Source of the DNA: a virus
Reading direction: 5' to 3' (one strand)
Length of the DNA stretch: 64,000 nt
Virus record (IMG/VR): IMGVR_UViG_3300035204_001665
Location: 18,870-82,869 of that record
A program made the position numbers and the translations under genes. The notes beneath the pieces were generated by a model. The model made no database searches, was not told the origin of the DNA, and saw nothing but the letters and a program-made list of their open reading frames with translations. Each line of letters opens with the position of its first letter. The first letter of the stretch is position 1. Shown in pieces: positions 973-64,000 of the stretch.

Positions 973-1503
973 ATGGCTTCAATATATAATATAGCTGGCT
1001 GGGTAGATACTAGTAAAAAATACTATGTAAATGATATCGTCTCTGTGGGTGATAGATTTTGGTACTGCATTAAAGATCACACTAGCTCTGCCGTAAACAC
1101 TCCAGAGATAGGATCAATATATTGGGACGGCAGCGTCAATATTACCATTGCAGGTGCCTCCAAAACTTGGCCCCTGTTTATCTGGAGTCCCTCCTACAAT
1201 CTAGGGATAGCTCATGAACCCAGAGTTCTAACTATTCAGTTTGGGGATGGCTACGAACAAAGGCTAACTGACGGAATAAATAATGATAAGCTAAGCTTTA
1301 CGCTGAACTTCGATAAAAGAAACAAACAAGAAGCCACGGCCATAATCCACTTCCTTGCATCTAAGTCTGGAAGAGACCCGTTCTTCTTTAAAGCTCCAGA
1401 ACCATATGGAGTGATGAAAAAATTTATATGTACACAATGGAGTTCCACGCTACAATTTGATGATAATTATACAGTTTCTGCGACGTTCAGCGAAAGGTCA
1501 TAA
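973..1503 (+). CDS. Lambda gpM-like minor tail protein with N-terminal carbohydrate-binding-like module
   Basis: 176 aa. Residues from about 75 to the end match the phage minor tail protein M family: 'IQFGDGYEQR' followed by 'DGIN', an aromatic strand, and 'FFFKAPEPYG' near the C-terminus. In lambda-type phages gpM acts at the tail tip between tape measure and gpL. The first ~55 residues ('YNIAGWVDTSKKYYVNDIV...YC...YWDG') look like an added chitin-binding (CBM5/12-like) fold, with the usual Y-x-x-x-D-I-V start and terminal Y-W. The Shine-Dalgarno AAGGA lies just before the ATG, and gpL follows after 2 bp. The gpM call is fairly firm; the sugar-binding call is by pattern only. Confidence 0.85.
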   Translation: MASIYNIAGWVDTSKKYYVNDIVSVGDRFWYCIKDHTSSAVNTPEIGSIYWDGSVNITIAGASKTWPLFIWSPSYNLGIAHEPRVLTIQFGDGYEQRLTDGINNDKLSFTLNFDKRNKQEATAIIHFLASKSGRDPFFFKAPEPYGVMKKFICTQWSSTLQFDDNYTVSATFSERS

Positions 1504-1505
1504 AG

Positions 1506-2681
1506 ATGCCAGATAAGATCAAGCCAGATACAGCAAAGACTACGGTGCAGGAAATTTCCAAAGAGGTTCATGCCCTAGAGGCAGATGCAATTATTTCCCT
1601 ATATGAAATTGACATTTCAGAAATCAAAAAAAATCTTATACTAGGAAGCACACTAGTACTCCAAGATAAGCTCCGCTTCCATAACATGGAAGTGTTAAAT
1701 AGAGAAAAAATTTATTTCAAAAATGAAGCCTATCACGCTCTCCCTATACTTACCGAAGGATTTGAAATCAGTTCCAGCAGTGATCTACCAAGACCAACAA
1801 TTACATTCGTCCCGATGAAGGGGATAGATGACAAAGGGGCAGACTACAACTTTACTTCGCTTAAGCAAGCGATCATATCCCTAGATAACATGGCCGGAGC
1901 CAAAGTCACCAGATGCAGAACATTTTTAAAATATCTAGACGCGAGTAACAATATCCCCGGAGCAGGGCAACATACAGGAACCAATCCAGAATTCCCTAGG
2001 GAAATTTATTATATAAATAGAAAAATTTCAGAGAGTAAAAGCTCTATCCAATTAGAACTCTCCTCGGTTTTAGACTTAGAAAATTTTAAAATTCCCAGCA
2101 GGCTTTGCCTTTCTAACCGTTGCCCATTTTCCTACAGGGGAGAGGGCTGTGCATACGAATACAGCGCAAGCGATCCGCCGCCTAATAATAGTTGTGAGAA
2201 TTGTCCTTCAGATATATCGAAACAAAAAGAAAGATTTGGAAATACAGCGATACTCCCCCAATTCGCTCCGCCCATAGCGGGAGACGACGACGTTCAGATA
2301 ACGGGATTCGGAGAGCCAGACGGGGCCTCATGGGTCGGCTACGCGATAGGAGAGGCACACACTAGGATATCTGGAGAATATCAAGGAAACATAAATTATC
2401 CTACGGGAGCAATAGTTTTTGTAGAAAAGAATGATATCAGATATTACTATATGTCCAAAGGTAATTCTGCAGCGAGTTATGGGCCAATAAAAAATATACC
2501 CCCGCCTAACTCAGCCTATTGGTATGCAGACAGATGTTCTAAAAGTATAGCTGGGTGCAAATATCGATGGGGTAAGACCGGCGCGGCAAAGTACCTAGAA
2601 AATAACGAATATAAACAAGCCAACAACTTCTTAATGTTTGGAGGCTTCCCCGGAACCAATAGCAAAACGAGCATACAATAA
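1506..2681 (+). CDS. Lambda gpL-like minor tail protein with split Fe-S motif
   Basis: 391 aa, against about 230 for lambda gpL. The N-terminal half has the gpL beta-rich character. The C-terminal domain shows 'CPFSYRGEGC' (C206-x8-C215) and 'CSKSIAGC' (C344-x6-C351), the two cysteine pairs that in gpL coordinate an iron-sulfur cluster. Here they are about 130 residues apart instead of about 20. The insert (residues ~216-343) carries another Cys pair (C230, C233) and a Tyr-rich CBM-like stretch ('YPTGAIVF...NSAYWY') resembling the gpM N-terminus. AAAGG precedes the ATG, and the stop overlaps the next start as TAATG. Confidence 0.87.
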   Translation: MPDKIKPDTAKTTVQEISKEVHALEADAIISLYEIDISEIKKNLILGSTLVLQDKLRFHNMEVLNREKIYFKNEAYHALPILTEGFEISSSSDLPRPTITFVPMKGIDDKGADYNFTSLKQAIISLDNMAGAKVTRCRTFLKYLDASNNIPGAGQHTGTNPEFPREIYYINRKISESKSSIQLELSSVLDLENFKIPSRLCLSNRCPFSYRGEGCAYEYSASDPPPNNSCENCPSDISKQKERFGNTAILPQFAPPIAGDDDVQITGFGEPDGASWVGYAIGEAHTRISGEYQGNINYPTGAIVFVEKNDIRYYYMSKGNSAASYGPIKNIPPPNSAYWYADRCSKSIAGCKYRWGKTGAAKYLENNEYKQANNFLMFGGFPGTNSKTSIQ

Positions 2682-3019
2682 TGGACCTACTGACAACAAA
2701 AGTAAAATCTAAAATTAAAGAACATTCCCTGTCTGAATTTCCAGATGAATGCTGCGGCCTAATAGTCTTAGATCAAGATAACTCTATCGATTCGATGAAG
2801 TGTAAAAATATAGCAAATAACAAAAGTTCCTTTTTTGAGATTGACCCGCTAGATTACCTAAAAGTATCTGAAAAGGGAGACATAAAGGCATACTATCACT
2901 CGCATACATCAGACAATCATTCTTTTTCTGGAGCAGACAAAGCGATAAGTCAAAGTAGTAATCTTCCGTTAATTATGTACTCGGTAAAAATAAATAAATT
3001 TTCAGAATATCATGGATAA
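2681..3019 (+). CDS. gpK-like tail assembly protein, JAMM (MPN) metallopeptidase domain only
   Basis: 112 aa. The JAMM zinc-peptidase signature is complete: E23 in 'PDECCG', then H73-S-H75-x7-S83-x2-D86 ('HSHTSDNHSFSGAD'). In lambda, gpK fuses such a domain to a C-terminal NlpC/P60 peptidoglycan hydrolase; here the protein ends after the JAMM domain, and the next ORF is gpI, so the NlpC/P60 part is missing. The role is probably tail-tip maturation. It overlaps gpL by one base (TAATG) and gpI by 8 bases, indicating translational coupling. Confidence 0.85.
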   Translation: MDLLTTKVKSKIKEHSLSEFPDECCGLIVLDQDNSIDSMKCKNIANNKSSFFEIDPLDYLKVSEKGDIKAYYHSHTSDNHSFSGADKAISQSSNLPLIMYSVKINKFSEYHG

Positions 3020-3647
3020 GAAACTAACAAAAATAGTATTACATGGTACCCTAGGAAAGGCAGCGGGAAGAGGGGAGTGGGACCTACAAATAGATAGCGC
3101 AAACGAAGCACTGCACGCAATAAATGTCCAAACACATGATTCACTTAGAAGATATTTTTTAAATACCAAAAACGCTTACGGCAGATATAAAGTCCTAGTT
3201 AACGAAAAAGAAATTTCTCCGGGGTCAAAATTTTCAGAGTTAAATGAAATGGCGATCATCAGGGGAGACTTTAAAAGACTAGATATTATACCGGTTCTCG
3301 AAGGATCAGATTGGCTAGACATGGTTGGCACATTCGGCGGATTCTGGATATTCGCTGGAGCTGAGAACCCTTACACAGCGATGATTGGACTTATGCTTAT
3401 GAGTCTCGGCGCTTCGAATCTGCTGGCGCAGCCTCCTGCTATGCCGGATACTAGGCAGATGCTCAATCCTAGTTCAGACCCCCAAGCATTAGCAAACTCT
3501 TATCTTTTTGGCGGGCCGGTTAACGTAATTAACGAGGGCGGACCAGTTCCAGTGGGATATGGAAGATTAATTGTCGGCAGTCAAGTAGTCATGTCTTCGT
3601 ATGATGTGGCATACGCCAAGGTAGACGACGCAGGAAAGGTAGCGTAA
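3012..3647 (+). CDS. Lambda gpI-like tail assembly protein
   Basis: 211 aa. The N-terminal ~90 residues form a ubiquitin-like region ('IVLHGTLGKAAGRGEWDLQI...EAL'). A hydrophobic Gly/Ala/Leu segment follows (about 105-135). The C-terminal signature 'SYLFGGPVNV...GGPVPVGYGRLIVGSQV' is diagnostic of the lambda tail assembly protein I family. gpI acts with gpK to assemble gpJ at the tail tip. It starts inside the end of the gpK-like gene and is followed 5 bp later by gpJ. Confidence 0.9.
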   Translation: MDKKLTKIVLHGTLGKAAGRGEWDLQIDSANEALHAINVQTHDSLRRYFLNTKNAYGRYKVLVNEKEISPGSKFSELNEMAIIRGDFKRLDIIPVLEGSDWLDMVGTFGGFWIFAGAENPYTAMIGLMLMSLGASNLLAQPPAMPDTRQMLNPSSDPQALANSYLFGGPVNVINEGGPVPVGYGRLIVGSQVVMSSYDVAYAKVDDAGKVA

Positions 3648-3652
3648 ATAAA

Positions 3653-6600
3653 ATGTCAATACAAAATGATAATTCATTTATAAAAGGCAGGACGGTTACG
3701 AACACGTCCACCGACCCTTCTTTAGCTGGCACGAACGATCAGGTTTATGGTGTAGATACTGCAGCACAAAACGCAGAAGCATATTCTGATTACGACGGCT
3801 ATCAAGATATCGTCTTTTCTAATAGAACTGGAGAGGGGGTCTTTTCTGGTTACGCTACAGACGGAACAGAAACATGGGTTACCTCCAGAGGAATAATAAA
3901 GACCTTAGATTTAATTTCTGAAGGGGAGATTGATGGAATAGTTAGTGGCGAATGGGTTCCCGGAGGCGACAATTCCGAAGGCCAAGTGGGCTGGAGCGAA
4001 GTTAATTTTCAAGCTCACGGAGATTGGCCAGAGGCTATACTTAGATCAGTTTTTCTTAATGACACGCCAGTAGTAAACGCAAACAGTCAATACAATTTTC
4101 AAAGAGCAGTAGTTTCCTTCTCTAATGGCAGAGCAGAAGGAGTAAGAGAAGGCGATAATTTTTTAAAGGTAGGATCAGATCAGGGGTTAGAAAAGACTAG
4201 AACGATTAATGAAAGGTTGAGGGGTCCAGATGTCAATGATCCAGAAGGAGACGGAACCGATGTCACTGGGGGAACGATCGATAATCCATTCTTTTATCAC
4301 CCCAAGGTCTACAGTATTCTTAATCCTCAATTGGAAAAGGTAAGAATCAACTTAAAAGTAGGCTCACTGACTTATCAAAAAACCATGGACGACTTCGAAG
4401 AAGGTACAGAGGTCGATCAAGCTATACTGGACGATATGGCAAATTTAAGAGGAAGTAAAATTAGTTTTCGATATAGATATAGGCCCATATATGTTGATGA
4501 CGCTGGGTTTATGGACTTAAATACCGCTAGAGATTGGTACCCAGAAGACGGAGCGATTGAAAACGGAGTAGAGGGACTCATTAGGAGCGCATACTTAGCG
4601 AAGCAAGAGATAACGGTAGACGACAGTTTAAAAACGGATCAACTCGCGGGGTGGGAATTTGAAATAACCAGAGTCACGTTGGATTCCATAGAAAGTAATG
4701 TAAATAACGAGACCTACATAGATTCTATTACTGAGGTTTTCGAAGATACGTTCTCCTATCCTACCTCAGCCATGGCGGCCATGAAGTTTAACGCTGAATA
4801 CTTTTCCCAAGTTCCAACTCGAGCCTATGACGTTAGACTGCTTAAAGTTAAGGTACCTGCGGGTAATGGAGGATATGAGCCACTGACAAGAACATATAAC
4901 GAACAACCTTGGGGCGGAACGTTTTCGGAAGAAAAAAAATGGACCGATAACCCAGCTTGGATCTTTTATGATATACTCACCAACGATAGATATGGAGTAG
5001 GCAAGCACATCGACAAGAGCCTCGTAGATAAGTGGTCTCTCTATGAAATAGCTAAATATTGTGACGTATTGGTCGACAATGGAGAAGGTGGATTGGAGCC
5101 CAGATTTACAGCAAACGTATTAATTAACACGAGAGAAGACGCGTATAAAGTCTTAAAAGATTTTGCTAGTGTTTTCAGGTCAATACTTTACTATGGCCTA
5201 GGCAGCATACACACCGTACAAGATAGGCCAAAACCAGAAATAGCCCACTATACTAACGCTAATGTAGAGGGCGGAGACTTTACATATAGTTCGACTAGTA
5301 GCAATATCAGGCCGACCGTATGCTTGGTCAGATATAATGACAGAACGAACTTCTACAAACCGGCGATCGAATACGTAGAGGACACAGAGGGCATAAGAAA
5401 GCATGGAGTTATAGAAAAAGAGATTACTGCATTCGCATGCACTAGCCGGTCACAAGCAGTAAGACTGGGAAGATGGATACTAACCACCGAATCAGCTCAA
5501 GCAGAAACAATTGGCTTTACGATTGGTCCGGAAGGTATGCTCTTGCGCCCGGGAGATATTATTAGAGTCGTAGACGAAAATAGAGACGCCGATAGATACG
5601 GCGGTAGAGTTATTAACTACGATTATTACGATGACGAAAAGCACGTTAAGGCCATAACTCTAGACAGGGTGCCCACAATAAAGGAAGAGACAGAATATAC
5701 CTTATTCTTAAATACCCCATCATACTTTTACGACACATCTTTGGTAGCGGGGGCAGATGAGGTTGATGGCGGATTAGATAGTTCAGACGTGAAGGACATA
5801 AGAAAGCCCCACATACAGTCTTTTGTTTTTAATGAGTCATCATCTAATATCACCATAGATAACACTATCAATATCGGCCCAGAAGGTATTGGTAATAGCA
5901 AGGGGGATATTTTCGGCACAAAAATCGCTCACGCTGGAGACGTTTCGCAAGGAGAATGGATGTTCGAAAGCTCGTTAAATTCGGGCACGATCGTAGATAA
6001 CGCTACTTGGACACTGGTAGACAATGCGTACGCGAGTAACCAATATACTGTCATATCCACAAAGGAAGAAGAAAAGTTCAAATATTCTGTACAGGCCCTA
6101 GTGCACGAGCCACGAAAATATGACTATATAGAGAAGGGGTTAGTATATTCTCCCCCGACGGGGCCTGACAATCCAACGGCGGCTCCACCGGGTCCGGACG
6201 GGGTCTCACTAATTGTCGGTAACTATAATCTCAGCACAAGTAATACGAAGAAAATCAACATCACGGTAGATAAACCCGATGATGATACCATAGGAACGAC
6301 CGTAGGGTACAGAATTTATGTTAAAGAAGGGTCTCAATTTGATTCTGACGATACCGTATCTCCCGGATCATCCATTCCAAAGAAAGAGTTCTTAATGAGA
6401 ACCCTTTTCTTAACGGACCCAACAGATAATAACGATAACCCTATTACCTACTATATCCCACCGAGAAATAATAAAACCTATTATTTTAGAGTATTTGCAG
6501 TTAATGCTGTTTCCGTTTTGTCGAGTGCGCACAAAGACAATAATATTCAAGTAACAGACCACTATCCTATCAAAGATATTAAAGTTCATTCCCTGAGACT

Positions 6601-8806
6601 AGCTACGGACTCTCCGATTCTCAATGAGGAAAAAGACTCCGCCGAAAAACAATTCTATTCAAATTTAGAAGATAAAGACGCGGCAGTGAGTTGGGAGTCG
6701 ACCTTCCTTAACGAAGTAGACATACCCATTATTTTAAAGTATAAAATTACAATCAGAAAAGTTAGCCCGAATTCTAGTCCGGCAGATTTGATAACGTCTT
6801 TTGAAACTAATTCAAGCTACTTCAACTATACCTTTGCCCTTAACGCAGCGACGACCGGAGGACCCAGAAGACACTTTGATTTAGTTGTAGAAGCTTTGGA
6901 CGAAAACGGGCAGAGCTCGGCTGATAATTATGCATCCAATGGAGAAGGGTGGGATATTATTGAGGTAAACAATCCGAGGCCATCGAATTACTGGTTGACT
7001 CCGAGAAAAGACGGTGGGAAAAGACCGGGCGATCACGTATGCAAAACGGTTAATGGCGTGGCCGACGTATGTGAAACGATAACGACGGAACAGTTCATAA
7101 CTGCAGATGGGCATATTAAACTCAACCTTATAAATAATTCGTTTTCAGACCTAGCGGGAGGATTCTTATACTTGTCTAAGCATCCTTTTTCTGGGGCAGA
7201 TTTTACCCCGGATGGCAGACCCAAGGACATAGCCAATAGGCCTAATATAGAATTTGCAGCGCACGAAGTATCTAAAAAGCCAGATTTTAGAATTATTGAA
7301 ATCCCCTTCGAACGAGGAGTAAACGACGCCCAACTTCCTTCACAAATTACCCTCAGTCCTCCAGCTGGGGAAGACGGATCTTCTTACGTCTTTAATTATT
7401 CCAACGCCTACTATATGGCTCTAAAACTATATGATAGCTACGATAAAGAAATTAAAGATAAGAAACTCAATCCGTGCTACGACTCTAACGCGGACCGTAT
7501 AACCGATTGTTGGGAAAGCGGTATGCACATAGGATTTGCTAGGGATCACAGAGTTAACAAAACATCCGATTGCGACCCATGCGGAGAGTCTACCCTCTCT
7601 GGAATGTATAGATTTACCAGTCTATCATCAGGATGGTACGTCGGGGATCACGATCACCCGGATGGTTTTTCGACGATATCTCCCTCACCATCAACGGGAA
7701 CTTTTGCTTGCCCAGTTTATCCCACTCAATATTACAGTGCGAGTGCAGAAAATGGCTTTAAATATTGGTTAAGAATGAACGTAAATGGTCAATGGGAAGG
7801 TAACGGAATATCCCATGTTCGAGTCCTTACTCATCAAGACGTTGAAGAACTATATGATTACCAAGGTTACTACGAATATACATGTAGGATGTCAGAGAAA
7901 GTCACGACAAGTTATTATGTTTACCCTAATGACATGGATTCGATAAGTAGATGTAGATTTAGACAAGGGAAACGCTCATCTTCGGGGGGAATTTATGATG
8001 TAGATAGATCTACGATTTTCGCTGGACCAATCCCTGCGTTAGGAGCACCGAGTGGTCCGTTTACGTGGACCACTGGGGCGACTAGGCCACCCGCTGGTAG
8101 CGATCCAGCAGGTGGAACTTGGGTCCCGTTGCCTAGGGCAGGAATACCTTACGGCGGATGGGGAAGGCAGTACGATGGCCCAGCAGATAATGATACCCTA
8201 GCAAGTCCAGACGTAGACAAAATAGATTCTCATAACTGGAGGGGTCAAAAAATTGAAGGTAAAAGCAGGCCGCTTTACGGTTTCAGAAGATTTAGAGTAT
8301 ACTTCGATCCGAATAATTTACCCCCAGAACAGGAAAAGTCGCAGTTATCTTCTTACGCTATCGTAGGACTTAATTCTTGGAACGGTCCATATGAGGCCTA
8401 TCCCGGCACTACAGATTATTCCAAGAGTCTACTAACTGCGAAAAATGACCTTGGGACATTTCCATATAGTGTAAGACAATGGATGAAAGAGGGCGATGTA
8501 TTTGAAAATATTCCCGGAGTTTGGGACCATCACCCAGCGGGTTTCGGCGCTGGTTACGGAGGGCTCGTAAAAACAGACCGATATTTTGATGTGCACATGG
8601 GCAGGTTAATAGATGATAGTTATTTAAATGAAGGCTTTTTTGGGGTGGTCGCTACGAATGATTACTCTATACTAGATTCCACGGTAAGGACTCCAAGCGC
8701 ATACGACCAAGAAACGAAATTACATGAGTCCACATGGGACACAAACGCGTTCGTTACTTTACCATTTGCCGCCGGGGGAGACGGTACGAACCCATATAAC
8801 GATTAA
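3653..8806 (+). CDS. gpJ-like tail tip / central fibre host-specificity protein
   Basis: 1717 aa. It opens the gpJ way: 'TSRGIIKTLDLISEGEIDGIVSG' around residues 78-100, and 'DNPAWIFYDILTNDRYG...DKWSLYEIAKYCD...EPRFTANVLI' around 430-490 is the conserved tip-hub region. The protein trimerises at the tail tip. Beta-sandwich, fibronectin-III-like segments follow (about 860-1000). The C-terminal ~500 residues are Cys-, Trp-, Tyr- and Gly-rich ('CDPCGESTLSGMY', 'CPVYP') with no recognised family and probably hold the receptor-binding part. Lambda J is about 1130 aa, so the extra length lies C-terminally. Confidence 0.92.
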   Translation: MSIQNDNSFIKGRTVTNTSTDPSLAGTNDQVYGVDTAAQNAEAYSDYDGYQDIVFSNRTGEGVFSGYATDGTETWVTSRGIIKTLDLISEGEIDGIVSGEWVPGGDNSEGQVGWSEVNFQAHGDWPEAILRSVFLNDTPVVNANSQYNFQRAVVSFSNGRAEGVREGDNFLKVGSDQGLEKTRTINERLRGPDVNDPEGDGTDVTGGTIDNPFFYHPKVYSILNPQLEKVRINLKVGSLTYQKTMDDFEEGTEVDQAILDDMANLRGSKISFRYRYRPIYVDDAGFMDLNTARDWYPEDGAIENGVEGLIRSAYLAKQEITVDDSLKTDQLAGWEFEITRVTLDSIESNVNNETYIDSITEVFEDTFSYPTSAMAAMKFNAEYFSQVPTRAYDVRLLKVKVPAGNGGYEPLTRTYNEQPWGGTFSEEKKWTDNPAWIFYDILTNDRYGVGKHIDKSLVDKWSLYEIAKYCDVLVDNGEGGLEPRFTANVLINTREDAYKVLKDFASVFRSILYYGLGSIHTVQDRPKPEIAHYTNANVEGGDFTYSSTSSNIRPTVCLVRYNDRTNFYKPAIEYVEDTEGIRKHGVIEKEITAFACTSRSQAVRLGRWILTTESAQAETIGFTIGPEGMLLRPGDIIRVVDENRDADRYGGRVINYDYYDDEKHVKAITLDRVPTIKEETEYTLFLNTPSYFYDTSLVAGADEVDGGLDSSDVKDIRKPHIQSFVFNESSSNITIDNTINIGPEGIGNSKGDIFGTKIAHAGDVSQGEWMFESSLNSGTIVDNATWTLVDNAYASNQYTVISTKEEEKFKYSVQALVHEPRKYDYIEKGLVYSPPTGPDNPTAAPPGPDGVSLIVGNYNLSTSNTKKINITVDKPDDDTIGTTVGYRIYVKEGSQFDSDDTVSPGSSIPKKEFLMRTLFLTDPTDNNDNPITYYIPPRNNKTYYFRVFAVNAVSVLSSAHKDNNIQVTDHYPIKDIKVHSLRLATDSPILNEEKDSAEKQFYSNLEDKDAAVSWESTFLNEVDIPIILKYKITIRKVSPNSSPADLITSFETNSSYFNYTFALNAATTGGPRRHFDLVVEALDENGQSSADNYASNGEGWDIIEVNNPRPSNYWLTPRKDGGKRPGDHVCKTVNGVADVCETITTEQFITADGHIKLNLINNSFSDLAGGFLYLSKHPFSGADFTPDGRPKDIANRPNIEFAAHEVSKKPDFRIIEIPFERGVNDAQLPSQITLSPPAGEDGSSYVFNYSNAYYMALKLYDSYDKEIKDKKLNPCYDSNADRITDCWESGMHIGFARDHRVNKTSDCDPCGESTLSGMYRFTSLSSGWYVGDHDHPDGFSTISPSPSTGTFACPVYPTQYYSASAENGFKYWLRMNVNGQWEGNGISHVRVLTHQDVEELYDYQGYYEYTCRMSEKVTTSYYVYPNDMDSISRCRFRQGKRSSSGGIYDVDRSTIFAGPIPALGAPSGPFTWTTGATRPPAGSDPAGGTWVPLPRAGIPYGGWGRQYDGPADNDTLASPDVDKIDSHNWRGQKIEGKSRPLYGFRRFRVYFDPNNLPPEQEKSQLSSYAIVGLNSWNGPYEAYPGTTDYSKSLLTAKNDLGTFPYSVRQWMKEGDVFENIPGVWDHHPAGFGAGYGGLVKTDRYFDVHMGRLIDDSYLNEGFFGVVATNDYSILDSTVRTPSAYDQETKLHESTWDTNAFVTLPFAAGGDGTNPYND

Positions 8807-8807
8807 A

Positions 8808-9542
8808 ATGAAAACTGGAATTAATAGAATTTTAATGATCATATTAAAAAATGAGAAAAGATATGTCTACTCCGTTCCGTCAGACCGGTCGCCAGAGGTT
8901 ATGATGAACGATGTTATCATGTCAGATAGGATCGACAGAAATGAAATAAAATCAAATTACTTCTTTCCCAATACTTTATATTCTATTCATGATTATTTGT
9001 ATTACTTTAATGAAGATACTAAAAAAGTTGATGATGTACTCCTTGCTATAGATTTTAAAATAGAGGAAGTGAAAAAGCATAGACAATCATTTTTTTCTGT
9101 GTTAGACTTTGAATTTATGAAGTCCCTAGAGGAAGGGAGCAAGAGTTGGACAGAACATATAACTAAAATTAAGAACTACCTAAGAGATCTCCCTCCTGAA
9201 ATAGAGCCTTACTGCAAAAATATGCCAGTGGACCAAATAGTTAAATTTAATGGCTTTAATAACATTTTTGATATACATATAATAAATGGAGGCAGCGGAT
9301 ATACTAAACCACCGAAGGTTATCATTGAGGATCCGAACGGATTAGATATGTCTGGGTTTAAACTCAAAGCAGTTGCCACCATTAAAGACGGAAAAGTGGT
9401 GGAAATAACGGTAACGCAAGTTGGTAGCGGGTATGACAGGGCTCCGTCGATTAATATATCTCCACCGGATGGAGAAGGTAGCGTAGCTGTAGCAGCAGCT
9501 GCTCTACCAGAAAACGATATTCACTCAATAAAACAAAAATAA
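8808..9542 (+). CDS. Tail-tip-associated structural or assembly protein with GSGY repeats
   Basis: 244 aa from the ATG at 8808, one base after the gpJ stop; a longer reading to 8724 would lie inside gpJ. Residues ~60-135 are helical, with 'FFSVLDFEFMKSLEEG...IKNYLRDLP', which recalls tail-fibre assembly chaperones that end in Arg-Asp-Leu-Pro. The C-terminal ~90 residues hold two beta units, 'NGGSGYTKPPKVII' and 'VGSGYDRAPSINIS', of a type seen in phage baseplate and neck proteins. Its position after gpJ suggests a tip protein or gpJ chaperone. The precise function is unknown. Confidence 0.7.
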   Translation: MKTGINRILMIILKNEKRYVYSVPSDRSPEVMMNDVIMSDRIDRNEIKSNYFFPNTLYSIHDYLYYFNEDTKKVDDVLLAIDFKIEEVKKHRQSFFSVLDFEFMKSLEEGSKSWTEHITKIKNYLRDLPPEIEPYCKNMPVDQIVKFNGFNNIFDIHIINGGSGYTKPPKVIIEDPNGLDMSGFKLKAVATIKDGKVVEITVTQVGSGYDRAPSINISPPDGEGSVAVAAAALPENDIHSIKQK

Positions 9543-9554
9543 AGGTATAAAGAT

Positions 9555-10445
9555 ATGGCAGTAATGATAAGAAAAAAATTCGGATATACAGTATCTGTTG
9601 TAAATGGTTCCAAAAGAATAACGGCTTGTTCCAAAGCTGACTGGATACCAATAAAAGATGGTAGCTTTATAATTATTGACGGAGATAATGAATACTATAG
9701 ATTATCACATAAAAAACAATTCCTTTATGTAAAAGAGGCCCGAGTAGATTCCGCGAATAAATTAGTTATAGATGGGATAGCAGAAAGCGGATCTATATCT
9801 GCTAATGATTCGTTAGAGTTTACAGCAAACGAATATCAGATCACAAAAGTAGACGTGGCTGATGGTGGCACAGATTATGTCGTCGGAGATATTATCTCTT
9901 GCGCTGGACCCCTTAGTAAACTTAATTCAAGCGATGATACTCAAGAGCACGCAAGGGTAGAGGTAAAATCTATTACCGAAAATGGATCCATTGAGTCAAT
10001 AGAGCTGATCTCGAACGGTACATATATTGCTGCTTCCGAAGAGGGTGACATTTTCAATATTAAAGATGGCTCTGGTTCAGGTGCGTCCCTTTCTTCTCGG
10101 TATACTCTGTCAGCTAATAAGCCAATAGAAGAGAGAAGCATTTCTGGAATAGAAAGGAAAGACAATAAAACCATAATCTACTTGTCTTATCCGTTACCGA
10201 TAAGTATGATCTCTGGCAATGTCTCTGTAAAAAAATGGGAAGCCGTTTTGGATTCTCCGTATCTAGGAGTGACTAAGGCTGGCGCATCATACGAAATAAT
10301 AAAAGACTTTACCCCTAATCTAGACCTGCCCCTCATAAAGGGAGAGCTAGCGTCTACTCCCTTGTTGTATAATGAGTCAATGGTACTAATTGATAAAAAA
10401 ATCAAGGAATTAGAAGAGCAGATCGAGTCACTTAAAGGAGAATAA
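9555..10445 (+). CDS. Putative tail-tip structural protein, beta-rich with C-terminal coiled coil
   Basis: 296 aa, unrecognised family. The middle carries 'DGGTDYVVGDIISCAG' and 'ISNGTYIAASEEGDIFNI', degenerate versions of the G-x-x-Y-x-x-G-D beta repeat in the preceding protein, so the two probably share a fold. The last ~25 residues ('LIDKKIKELEEQIESL') form a short amphipathic coiled coil that could trimerise it. It lies 12 bp after the 8808 gene in the same operon. A virion role is inferred from context only. Confidence 0.65.
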   Translation: MAVMIRKKFGYTVSVVNGSKRITACSKADWIPIKDGSFIIIDGDNEYYRLSHKKQFLYVKEARVDSANKLVIDGIAESGSISANDSLEFTANEYQITKVDVADGGTDYVVGDIISCAGPLSKLNSSDDTQEHARVEVKSITENGSIESIELISNGTYIAASEEGDIFNIKDGSGSGASLSSRYTLSANKPIEERSISGIERKDNKTIIYLSYPLPISMISGNVSVKKWEAVLDSPYLGVTKAGASYEIIKDFTPNLDLPLIKGELASTPLLYNESMVLIDKKIKELEEQIESLKGE

Positions 10446-10472: not shown

Positions 10473-11630
10473 ATGCAAGACCCGGTAGACGTAAACGCTT
10501 ATAATAACCCAGATATTCCTGATATTTCCTTGCCAGACATTCCAATGCCTGAGCCAGAAGAGGTAGTCGTAAAGGAAGTGAAAGACGAAATGGACGCAGC
10601 CTTCAAATTTGCTTTTGTAGGGGCTGGCCAAGGCGGATCGAGAATCGCAGAGACATTCCACAAATTGGGGTACAGAAAAATTGCGGTTCTCAACACTGCT
10701 CAACAAGACTTAAACACTGTTAACTTGCAAAATAAACTTCTAATTGGAGAAGGCGGTGCCGGGAAAGATCCCGCATATGCAAAAAAAGTATTCGCCGAAA
10801 AGAAAGAGGAAGTAGTAGATTTCATGAGATATTCGTTCGGCGAAGAACTGGATAAAATCATGGTGTGCGCAGGTGCGGGTGGAGGAACAGGGTCAGGTAC
10901 AGTGACTTCCTTAGTCCTCGCTGCGAAAGAATTACAGGATACACTCGGAGCAAAGACTCCGAAGGTCGGTGTCATTTTAGCCTTACCCAAACATTCCGAA
11001 GGAAAAAAGGTTAATGCAAATGCCCACAAATGTTTAAATGACGTTTATAAGTTGGTGGAAGAAGGTATAGTATCTCCTTTCGTCATCATTGATAATGAAA
11101 GGATCGGTAAGCTGTATCCCAACTTGGTTGTTTCTAAATTTTGGGATACCGCTAACATGAGCATGGCTGGTCTGTTTCACTTATTTAACTTAACTGCTTC
11201 TAGAGACAGCTCTTATACGGCTTTCGATTCTAGTGATTATAAGTCTGTACTAGATTCTGGATTAATGATGTTCGGTGCTGCCCCAGTGAAAGACTGGGAA
11301 GATCCGGTTAGTATTTCCAGAGCGATAAGAGACAATTTCAAAAAAGGTTTACTTTCGGGAGGTATCGATGTTTCTACGGGTAATTGCGCCGGAGCAATTG
11401 TCGTAGGAGGGAAAGAACAACTCGACAATATACCTCAATCCAGCCTCGATCAAGCATTTGACCAATTATGTAGGATGCTTAAGCCGGGGAACGTCGTCCA
11501 CAGGGGCATTTACAGCGGCGACAAGCCCTCTCTGACGGTTTATACGGCCGTTGGGGGTCTAGGTAAGCCTGTAGACAAACTGAGCGAATTAATGAAGCTC
11601 GGAGACATGGTTCCCCTCGAAGAGGACTAA
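10473..11630 (+). CDS. Tubulin/FtsZ-superfamily GTPase, phage-encoded
   Basis: 385 aa. Residues 1-40 form an acidic Pro-rich extension. The GTPase fold follows: 'GAGQGGSR' (50-57) is the nucleotide-binding first loop, and 'AGAGGGTGSG' (133-142) holds the tubulin signature GGGTGSG. The region 'FDSSDYKSVLDSGLMMFG' (251-268) aligns with the FtsZ T7 loop, keeping D252 and D255 as catalytic Asp candidates while Ala replaces the usual Asn. The C-terminus is acidic (LEED). Such proteins form GTP-dependent filaments; phage relatives (PhuZ, TubZ) position DNA or capsids. No DNA-binding adaptor is adjacent. It is the last gene of the tail-tip operon and meets the tape-measure gene head-on 6 bp away. 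Confidence 0.9.
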   Translation: MQDPVDVNAYNNPDIPDISLPDIPMPEPEEVVVKEVKDEMDAAFKFAFVGAGQGGSRIAETFHKLGYRKIAVLNTAQQDLNTVNLQNKLLIGEGGAGKDPAYAKKVFAEKKEEVVDFMRYSFGEELDKIMVCAGAGGGTGSGTVTSLVLAAKELQDTLGAKTPKVGVILALPKHSEGKKVNANAHKCLNDVYKLVEEGIVSPFVIIDNERIGKLYPNLVVSKFWDTANMSMAGLFHLFNLTASRDSSYTAFDSSDYKSVLDSGLMMFGAAPVKDWEDPVSISRAIRDNFKKGLLSGGIDVSTGNCAGAIVVGGKEQLDNIPQSSLDQAFDQLCRMLKPGNVVHRGIYSGDKPSLTVYTAVGGLGKPVDKLSELMKLGDMVPLEED

Positions 11631-27975: not shown

Positions 27976-29085
27976 TTAGCTTACCGAACCACTCATGAAC
28001 AATCCTCTATCAGTTTGAGAGGATGAACCGATTTGAGTACTAAACGTTAGCGTTACGGACTCGTTATCTCCAATCGAGCTAGTAAAGGACTGGCTGTCCA
28101 ATTTAGCCTTCTTAAGGAGGAACGCGATGTGTGCGTTTGCGCCATCGTTCAGGTGAACCGTCACGTCGTGGCTACGGTCCAAATCAATGATATCCGCTAG
28201 GTTACCAGTGGTTAAGTCTCCGACCAGTGCGTCTACGGTCATGGTTACTGTCACCGGGAAGGTAATCTCTCTAGCGAATGCAAAACGGCTGCCTAACTTA
28301 TTCAGCGGCTCTCTTGCGAGGTCGAAACTAAGGTTATAGTTTTGAACCTTGGCATCACTAATCGCACCTTCCACGAATGGGAGGTCAAGAGTGATGTCAC
28401 CGGGTTTGATCGCGTTAACGATACTCGAACCGGTTTGAGAGGTAGCTTCAGCAAGGCTGAACTTATATTTTGTGTTCTTCAAGCCGTCTGATGGGTTAAC
28501 ATGAGGTGAATATCCACCCGTACCTTGAATAAAGGCCATGTTAAGGGCTTCCACAGTAGATGAAGCCGTCGGGAATCCACCGACTGCTGCTTCAGATGTG
28601 TACGAAGCCATAAATCCATTACCAACGCCGATCACGCGACTAAGATTAGTTGGGTTGCCGCCGTCTTCGGCTTCTGCGAATCCGACTGCGTCACTACCTT
28701 CAGATACAATCCGAATGTAGTAGTTTCTCTCGTCAGCGTCGTTATCCAAAATGTCAGTCAAACAGGACTCTGTCCCGCCTCCGATTTTGAATCCCATTTT
28801 ATCTTCGTTATGGAAGCTGCAGAGATACCAAGAAAAGTCCAGACTTACAGTCGGCTGTTCCAAGATAACTCTATCGATGGCGGCGAGATCGCCGTATTGG
28901 TTTACGTCTTGTCTAGCGATGTCAAAACTATAGTTAGCGCTTTGAATTCGCTTGAGCTGGTTAGGTGCATGTGTTCCAGACTCGTGATCCCAATCTCTTG
29001 TATCAACATGATTCGCGGAGTACCGCTTATCCGGTCCGGCGTACACTGCTTGACTTTGATAAATTACTCTATTTCTAGTGGCCAT
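27976..29085 (-). CDS. Major tail (tube) protein
   Basis: 369 aa. The protein is beta-rich with few charged repeats and falls into two similar halves: 'SANYSFDIARQDVNQYGDL...LEQPTVSLDFSWYL' and 'VQNYNLSFDLAREPLNKLG...ITFPVTVTMTVDALV', as in tube proteins with duplicated folds. The gene has its own upstream AT-rich promoter-like region (AAATGTAAT at 29111-29119), an AAGGAA ribosome site and a strong terminator, as expected for a very abundant virion protein. The location between connector genes and tape measure fits. The assignment rests on these features, not on a database match. Confidence 0.75.
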   Translation of the reverse strand: MATRNRVIYQSQAVYAGPDKRYSANHVDTRDWDHESGTHAPNQLKRIQSANYSFDIARQDVNQYGDLAAIDRVILEQPTVSLDFSWYLCSFHNEDKMGFKIGGGTESCLTDILDNDADERNYYIRIVSEGSDAVGFAEAEDGGNPTNLSRVIGVGNGFMASYTSEAAVGGFPTASSTVEALNMAFIQGTGGYSPHVNPSDGLKNTKYKFSLAEATSQTGSSIVNAIKPGDITLDLPFVEGAISDAKVQNYNLSFDLAREPLNKLGSRFAFAREITFPVTVTMTVDALVGDLTTGNLADIIDLDRSHDVTVHLNDGANAHIAFLLKKAKLDSQSFTSSIGDNESVTLTFSTQIGSSSQTDRGLFMSGSVS

Positions 29086-63506: not shown

Positions 63507-63704
63507 TTATTTACTTTCACTGTTATCGCCTTGTTCTTCTTTGTTAGAGTTCAATGCCTCGTGGACCATCTTAATGGCATTGTCGACTAAAGAATGTTCT
63601 TGATAATTTAACCTAGTATTTCTAGCTAAATTTACCAAAAGGTTAAAGGCTCCCTCTAGATCCATCTCTTTTAATTGCTCTTCTGTTTGGTTTTCTTGTT
63701 CCAT
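63507..63704 (-). CDS. Small acidic protein, 65 aa
   Basis: Starts MEQENQTEEQLKEMDLEG and has one central helix pair ('AFNLLVNLARNTRLNYQEHSLVDNAIKMVHEAL') with Glu/Gln/Asn-rich ends. The helical core resembles small accessory proteins found in many phages. Terminator immediately downstream. Function unknown. Confidence 0.55.
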   Translation of the reverse strand: MEQENQTEEQLKEMDLEGAFNLLVNLARNTRLNYQEHSLVDNAIKMVHEALNSNKEEQGDNSESK

Positions 63705-63733
63705 ATTCTACTTTACCACTTTTAAAATAAATG

Positions 63734-63994
63734 TCAATCAGATAATGCTCCGTGAACTTGCAGTACATCTAGCTGCCCCGAGTCAGTAAGTGTCAGCTCG
63801 TCTGTACAGCTGGCGTCCGCTGACGTATGTTTTGCCCACAGGACGAAATTAATACAATTTCTAGAGGCATTTACGTCACTTGCAGTCACTTTGTACATCG
63901 CGCTCATCTGCTGTTCTTGTGGAAAAATTGTCCCCGAGGTCACAGATCCGATTTCGAACATTTCTATTTCATACATTGAAGTATAAACTGACAT
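63734..63994 (-). CDS. Hypothetical small beta protein, 86 aa
   Basis: Starts MSVYTSMYEIEMFEIG at 63994, six bases from the window edge, so upstream signals and an earlier start cannot be judged. Contains 'CINFVLWAKHTSADASCTDEL' and ends 'VLQVHGALSD'. Small beta composition like minor head proteins. Function unknown. Confidence 0.5.
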   Translation of the reverse strand: MSVYTSMYEIEMFEIGSVTSGTIFPQEQQMSAMYKVTASDVNASRNCINFVLWAKHTSADASCTDELTLTDSGQLDVLQVHGALSD

Positions 63995-64000
63995 GTGACT

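What the first reader, a model, noticed from the sequence alone, without database searches (positions are those of the whole stretch)
10473..11630. Tubulin/FtsZ-like GTPase embedded in the tail module
The protein has a G-A-G-Q-G-G nucleotide loop, GGGTGSG, and a T7-like F-D-S-S-D segment with both Asp present. It ends a lambda-type tip operon and abuts a giant tape measure. Known phage tubulins (PhuZ, TubZ) position DNA or capsids and are not tail-operon genes. A link to assembling or moving a very long-tailed virion is possible. The gene differs from PhuZ by a Pro-rich acidic N-terminus.
Basis: partly seen in the sequence, partly recalled or inferred. Interest (0 to 1): 0.82.

Follow-up and report, generated by a model that had tools for sequence, protein, structure and literature searches.

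The report
Portal-linked phage tubulin-like GTPase family
An uncultured tailed phage carries a real tubulin-like protein of an uncharacterised family; in 80 of 81 relatives its gene sits beside the gene for the DNA-packaging portal, so the tail-gene position seen here is an exception, and a role in late virus assembly or positioning is the likeliest reading.

Summary
The ORF at 10473-11630 (385 aa) is a genuine tubulin/FtsZ-superfamily protein: Pfam Tubulin in 81/81 homologues, an AlphaFold model matching TubZ, CetZ and FtsZ, and nucleotide-loop residues and both T7 aspartates invariant in 81/81. It is under very strong purifying selection (median dN/dS 0.02). In 80 of 81 homologous loci the gene lies 0-2 genes (64 directly, typically a few nt) downstream of the portal gene. 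The window is the only locus found with it between a tip operon and a tape measure; the closest relative of that junction (L131) lacks it there. It is absent beside the portal in most of the wider portal/terminase family, yet kept at the same slot in divergent clades.

It is neither FtsZ (64 bits against a cut-off of 295), nor TubZ/PhuZ by the tests run (short C-terminal helix, no iterons found). Its nearest cellular relatives (37-42% identity) are sporadic chromosomal genes of Phycisphaerae and Omnitrophota, lineages in which canonical FtsZ was not detected. Those carry basic N-terminal tails; the phage proteins carry a conserved acidic PDIPxP tail. Best reading: a late-expressed, probably polymerising tubulin acting on capsids or packaging sites. 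A long-tail link is only suggestive.

The parts
10473..11630 (+). tubulin/FtsZ-superfamily GTPase gene (385 aa), here called T
   Evidence: Pfam Tubulin, PDB profile hits, AlphaFold/Foldseek, 81-member family
10533..10550 (+). conserved PDIPMP motif (residues 21-26) in the acidic, Pro-rich N-terminal tail
   Evidence: P-[DE]-I-P-x-P in 74/81; tail charge -6 to -14 in 81/81; tail of low model confidence
10620..10637 (+). GAGQGG nucleotide loop (residues 50-55)
   Evidence: G50, G52, Q53 and G55 invariant in 81/81
10872..10898 (+). tubulin signature GAGGGTGSG (residues 134-142)
   Evidence: G134, G136-138, G140 and G142 invariant in 81/81
11223..11237 (+). T7-like loop FDSSD (D252, D255), equivalent to FtsZ DFAD
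   Evidence: both Asp invariant in 81/81; aligned with the T7 loop of MjFtsZ
973..10445 (+). lambda-type tail-tip operon (M, L, K, I, J homologues and two downstream genes) upstream of T
   Evidence: orthologous block in G004, G005, L131
11637..25556 (-). 4639-aa tape measure gene, convergent with T
   Evidence: PHROG tape-measure hits
63507..64000 (-). small gene and truncated gene at the contig end, where the portal-side slot for T would be approached; portal and terminase lie beyond the contig
   Evidence: order compared with G008 and G024; the truncated gene has no detectable homologue

Best explanation
T is a phage-encoded, GTP-dependent, probably filament-forming tubulin-like protein that in most carriers is made late from the terminase-portal operon, coupled to portal translation. 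SHOWN here: superfamily membership, invariant nucleotide and T7-loop residues, strong purifying selection, portal linkage. INFERRED: filaments assemble head to tail with the T7 aspartates acting on the neighbouring subunit's GTP; the acidic PDIPxP N-terminal tail, rather than the C-terminal tail used by TubZ, recruits a partner; and the filaments position or carry procapsids or packaging complexes, or the replicating DNA pool, during late infection. It would work like PhuZ while being a separate family. In the window's phage the gene has been relocated to, or re-acquired at, the end of the tip operon, another late transcription unit.
For: Fold and catalytic residues. Portal 0-2 genes upstream in 80/81, 64 directly, most gaps between -28 and +11 nt; portal identity backed by a Foldseek list made up of portal or portal-neck structures and phrog_16240. 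Median dN/dS of T 0.020 against TerL 0.031, portal 0.029 and the 385-aa head-module gene 0.075. Conserved acidic N-tail contrasts with basic tails in chromosomal relatives (+4 to +85). The PhuZ precedent for capsid trafficking and DNA-compartment positioning is reviewed in PMC13282480.
Against: No experiment. Polymerisation, cargo and timing are inferred. T is absent beside the portal in 78 of 102 informative loci of the wider portal/terminase sets, so it is not needed by the portal itself. Late-module genes are often accessory, so neighbourhood is weak evidence of cargo. The model has only a 10-residue last helix (367-376), unlike the H11 described for TubZ. No chimallin search was made.
Confidence: 0.42

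Rival explanations
1. T targets the host: it co-assembles with, caps or competes with host FtsZ or a host tubulin-like protein to block division and enlarge the cell, as other phage FtsZ inhibitors do by other means.
For: Homologous to FtsZ over the GTPase domain; PDIPxP contains DIP, which from memory resembles the FtsZ C-terminal peptide; cellular relatives exist in bacteria.
Against: Host takeover genes are usually early, whereas T lies in the portal operon; both catalytic Asp are kept in 81/81, which a decoy would not need. The DIP resemblance is only three residues.
Confidence: 0.17
2. T is a tail or virion assembly factor needed for extremely long tails.
For: Sits beside the tape measure in the window; carriers measured have longer tape measures (p=0.006; lengths).
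Against: Position is unique to the window; carrier G357 has a 2902-aa tape measure; non-carriers reach 3371 aa, and a 5143-aa one occurs in a contig lacking T and portal; lineages not independent.
Confidence: 0.12
3. T is a TubZ-type partition motor keeping an extrachromosomal phage genome in dividing cells.
For: Best structural and sequence match is TubZ.
Against: No iterons near T in the window, L015 or L004; neighbours are portal, head-module and small unassigned genes rather than a recognised DNA-binding TubR partner; TubZ-like_C below cut-off.
Confidence: 0.1
4. T positions the phage DNA pool or replication site only, with the portal linkage being incidental late expression.
For: DNA centring is the best-known phage tubulin role (PMC13282480).
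Against: Strict linkage to portal over divergent clades rather than to replication genes.
Confidence: 0.15

Closest known systems
TubZ/RepX (plasmids and a clostridial phage)
   Same: Best PDB sequence hit (E=2e-20 with the family profile) and best fold match (TM 0.70-0.76); T7 aspartates kept
   Different: About 23% identity or less; short last helix (367-376) and short C-tail; no iterons found near T; portal operon context
PhuZ (Chimalliviridae jumbo phages)
   Same: Phage-encoded tubulin-like GTPase; matched by Foldseek at low TM (Noxifer PhuZ TM 0.53-0.58)
   Different: Only 12-15% identical to the PhuZ-type hits; contigs here are 82-162 kb; portal-linked
FtsZ
   Same: GTPase domain, TIGR00065 hit at 64 bits
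   Different: Far below the 295-bit cut-off; no FtsZ_C match reported in 81 members; tail at the N-terminus instead of the C-terminus
Chromosomal T-like proteins of Phycisphaerae, Sedimentisphaerales, Omnitrophota and an Anaerolineae MAG
   Same: Nearest cellular relatives, 37-42% over nearly the full length
   Different: Basic Lys/Arg-rich N-tails in most; chromosomal housekeeping neighbours
A0A6J5RW92, FtsZ of an uncultured Caudovirales phage
   Same: Best BFVD fold match, TM 0.82, 28% identity
   Different: 452 aa; context not examined; uncharacterised

Membership tests
Tubulin/FtsZ superfamily | Pfam Tubulin GTPase domain above curated cut-off | tested here: met
   48.9 bits against 33 for the window protein; 81/81 members match at E<=0.01
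Tubulin/FtsZ superfamily | tubulin signature and catalytic T7 acidic residues | tested here: met
   invariant glycines, D252 and D255 in 81/81
Tubulin/FtsZ superfamily | tubulin fold | tested here: met
   AlphaFold pLDDT 83.4; Foldseek hits TubZ, FtsZ, CetZ with probability 1.00
Tubulin/FtsZ superfamily | GTP hydrolysis and polymerisation | not testable with these tools
   needs purified protein
FtsZ | passes NCBIfam TIGR00065 cut-off | tested here: not met
   63.9 bits against 295.2
TubZ | TubZ-like C-terminal domain above cut-off | tested here: not met
   15.3 bits against 26; weak in 22/81
TubZ | iteron centromere next to the gene | tested here: not met
   no repeat array in three loci; only local regions searched
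TubZ | adjacent TubR DNA-binding protein | tested here: inconclusive
   neighbour families largely unannotated; no TubR-specific search
PhuZ | chimallin-encoding jumbo phage | not tested
   contigs 82-162 kb and not known to be complete; chimallin not searched
PhuZ | sequence similarity to PhuZ | tested here: not met
   no tblastn match in 50,697 phage records even at E=10; 13% identity in fold match
PhuZ | late capsid and DNA positioning by filaments | not testable with these tools
   needs imaging

The most novel reading that the evidence does not exclude
A third class of phage tubulin, separate from PhuZ and TubZ, is encoded in the portal operon of a large uncultured group of tailed phages outside the known nucleus-forming jumbo phages, uses an N-terminal acidic PDIPxP tail to engage capsids or the packaging complex, and descends from, or shares an ancestor with, chromosomal tubulins of bacteria in which FtsZ is not detected.
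Probability: 0.3. Interest if true: 0.85.

Novelty: new variant of a known kind. Interest (0 to 1): 0.62.

Why it matters
Characterised phage tubulins come mainly from nucleus-forming jumbo phages and TubZ-type plasmids or phages. This family shows a tubulin fixed beside the portal in divergent smaller phages, under stronger constraint than terminase, which makes the question of whether ordinary-sized phages use their own cytoskeleton for capsid or DNA positioning directly testable. Its chromosomal relatives in bacteria lacking detectable FtsZ are a second lead.

Tried and rejected
Tail-operon linkage as a conserved feature: rejected by the survey and L131. Horizontal gain of T by the window lineage: T identity to the G003/G004/L016 clade is 77-79% while head-module genes are 48-57%, against T 62-68% for other pairs of like head-gene distance, which favours transfer; but in the head-gene tree the window groups with G024 and then beside that clade, and in the T tree its sister position to the clade is not rejected (p-AU 0.143), so vertical descent with relocation is also open. 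Partition iterons: none. No match among INPHARED phages. Portal AlphaFold model is poor (pLDDT 62.7), so its Foldseek TM-scores are low although the listed hits are all portals or necks. Two family-search calls failed on coordinates. PMC12625630 on PhuZ diversity is not held.

Full report
OBSERVATION. The ORF 10473-11630 + encodes 385 aa starting at ATG. Pfam Tubulin matches residues 48-211 at E=1.2e-12. The best solved relative is RepX/TubZ 4ei7 (E=8.5e-16), followed by archaeal CetZ and FtsZ; with the family profile E falls to 2.4e-20. The window is the 3' part of an 82,869-base IMG/VR virus record.

FAMILY. IMG/VR scans gave 80 further loci, 58-79% identical to the window protein in alignment A2. 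81/81 match Pfam Tubulin. The nucleotide loop, tubulin signature, N74/T75, D207-E209 and both T7 aspartates are invariant. AlphaFold with this alignment gives pLDDT 83.4 and pTM 0.84; Foldseek returns TubZ (TM 0.70-0.76), CetZ (0.65-0.72) and FtsZ (about 0.62). The last helix is short (367-376), followed by a short low-confidence tail, whereas residues 1-18 are of low confidence (pLDDT below 50) and the N-terminal tail is acidic with a conserved PDIPxP motif. Median pairwise dN/dS is 0.020, below TerL, portal and the 385-aa head-module gene.

CONTEXT. In the window T ends the tip operon and converges on a 4639-aa tape measure. This arrangement was not found elsewhere. In 80 of 81 loci the portal gene is upstream of T: 64 directly, 14 with one gene between, 2 with two; typical gap 2-7 nt or a short overlap. 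Terminase lies just upstream of the portal. Portal identity rests on phrog_16240 in 14/41 members and a Foldseek list of portals and necks. Head-module genes follow. G004 and G005 show the full order: terminase, portal, T, head, tail, tape measure (6037 and 6429 aa), then a gene orthologous to the window's 9555-10445 and the inverted tip operon. L131 carries the same tip operon and junction as the window without T. The window's contig ends before portal and terminase, so a second copy there cannot be excluded; the neighbouring small gene is matched in G024, where the portal-side slot has no T.

DISTRIBUTION. Of 102 informative portal loci, 24 have T and 78 do not. On a portal tree of 120 sequences the label needs about 6 changes against 40 in shuffles: T is clade-clustered, with ancient presence and several losses or several gains both possible. 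Twelve large relatives were searched and only one had T.

TAPE MEASURE. Complete tape measures: carriers 2902, 4639, 6037 and 6429 aa; 13 relatives with portal and without T 1831-3371 aa, median 2193. Exact Mann-Whitney p=0.006. This is uncorrected for ancestry and rests on four carriers, two of them near relatives. At about 0.15 nm per residue (general knowledge) 6429 aa would be near 1 micrometre, comparable with the longest tail known, P74-26 (PMC10034513).

CELLULAR RELATIVES. A GTDB scan found 18 loci at 37-47% identity. One (L113, 47%) has a DNA polymerase III alpha-like gene and an AAA+ gene nearby and may be another phage. The other loci examined in detail have chromosomal housekeeping neighbours such as ilvC, pgk and gap homologues, named from reading the translations. 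TIGR00065 has no above-cut-off match in 150 Phycisphaerae-class genomes or 193 Omnitrophota genomes; weak hits occur in 7 and 1, those in the known carriers being the T-like genes. In a sample of 294 genomes of the phylum 6 have a match to the T-like profile, 3 of them strong. Their N-tails are basic, against acidic in phages.

MECHANISM. Linkage to the portal operon, strong constraint and intact catalytic residues make an active, probably polymerising GTPase expressed with head genes the best reading; action on capsids, packaging or DNA positioning is inferred from PhuZ (reviewed in PMC13282480). Alternatives are ranked in the rival list. The novelty claim rests on the collections and open papers searched; a 2025 survey of chimallin and PhuZ phages (PMC12625630) could not be read.

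Noticed in passing
L114, L116, L117, L120, L122, L124, L125: Sporadic chromosomal T-like tubulins in Phycisphaerae and Omnitrophota, groups where canonical FtsZ was not detected above cut-off in 150 and 193 sampled genomes; they bear basic histone-like N-tails.
   Followed up: partly
L097-L098 (G004), L101-L102 (G005): Tape measure genes of 6037 and 6429 aa, among the largest, next to inverted lambda-type tip operons.
   Followed up: partly
window 9555-10445: The gene before T is on the tip-operon strand in the window and L131 but on the tape-measure strand in G004 and G005, so a local inversion occurred at this junction.
   Followed up: no
L004 8634-9938; window 27976-29085: Paralogues of one family occur both between portal and T and in the tail module just before the tape measure, a possible tail-tube-like family.
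   Followed up: no
L113 8870-10087: A 47% identical T with a PDIPLP motif in a MAG contig with DNA polymerase III alpha-like and ClpA-like genes, away from any recognised portal; possibly a different large phage.
   Followed up: partly
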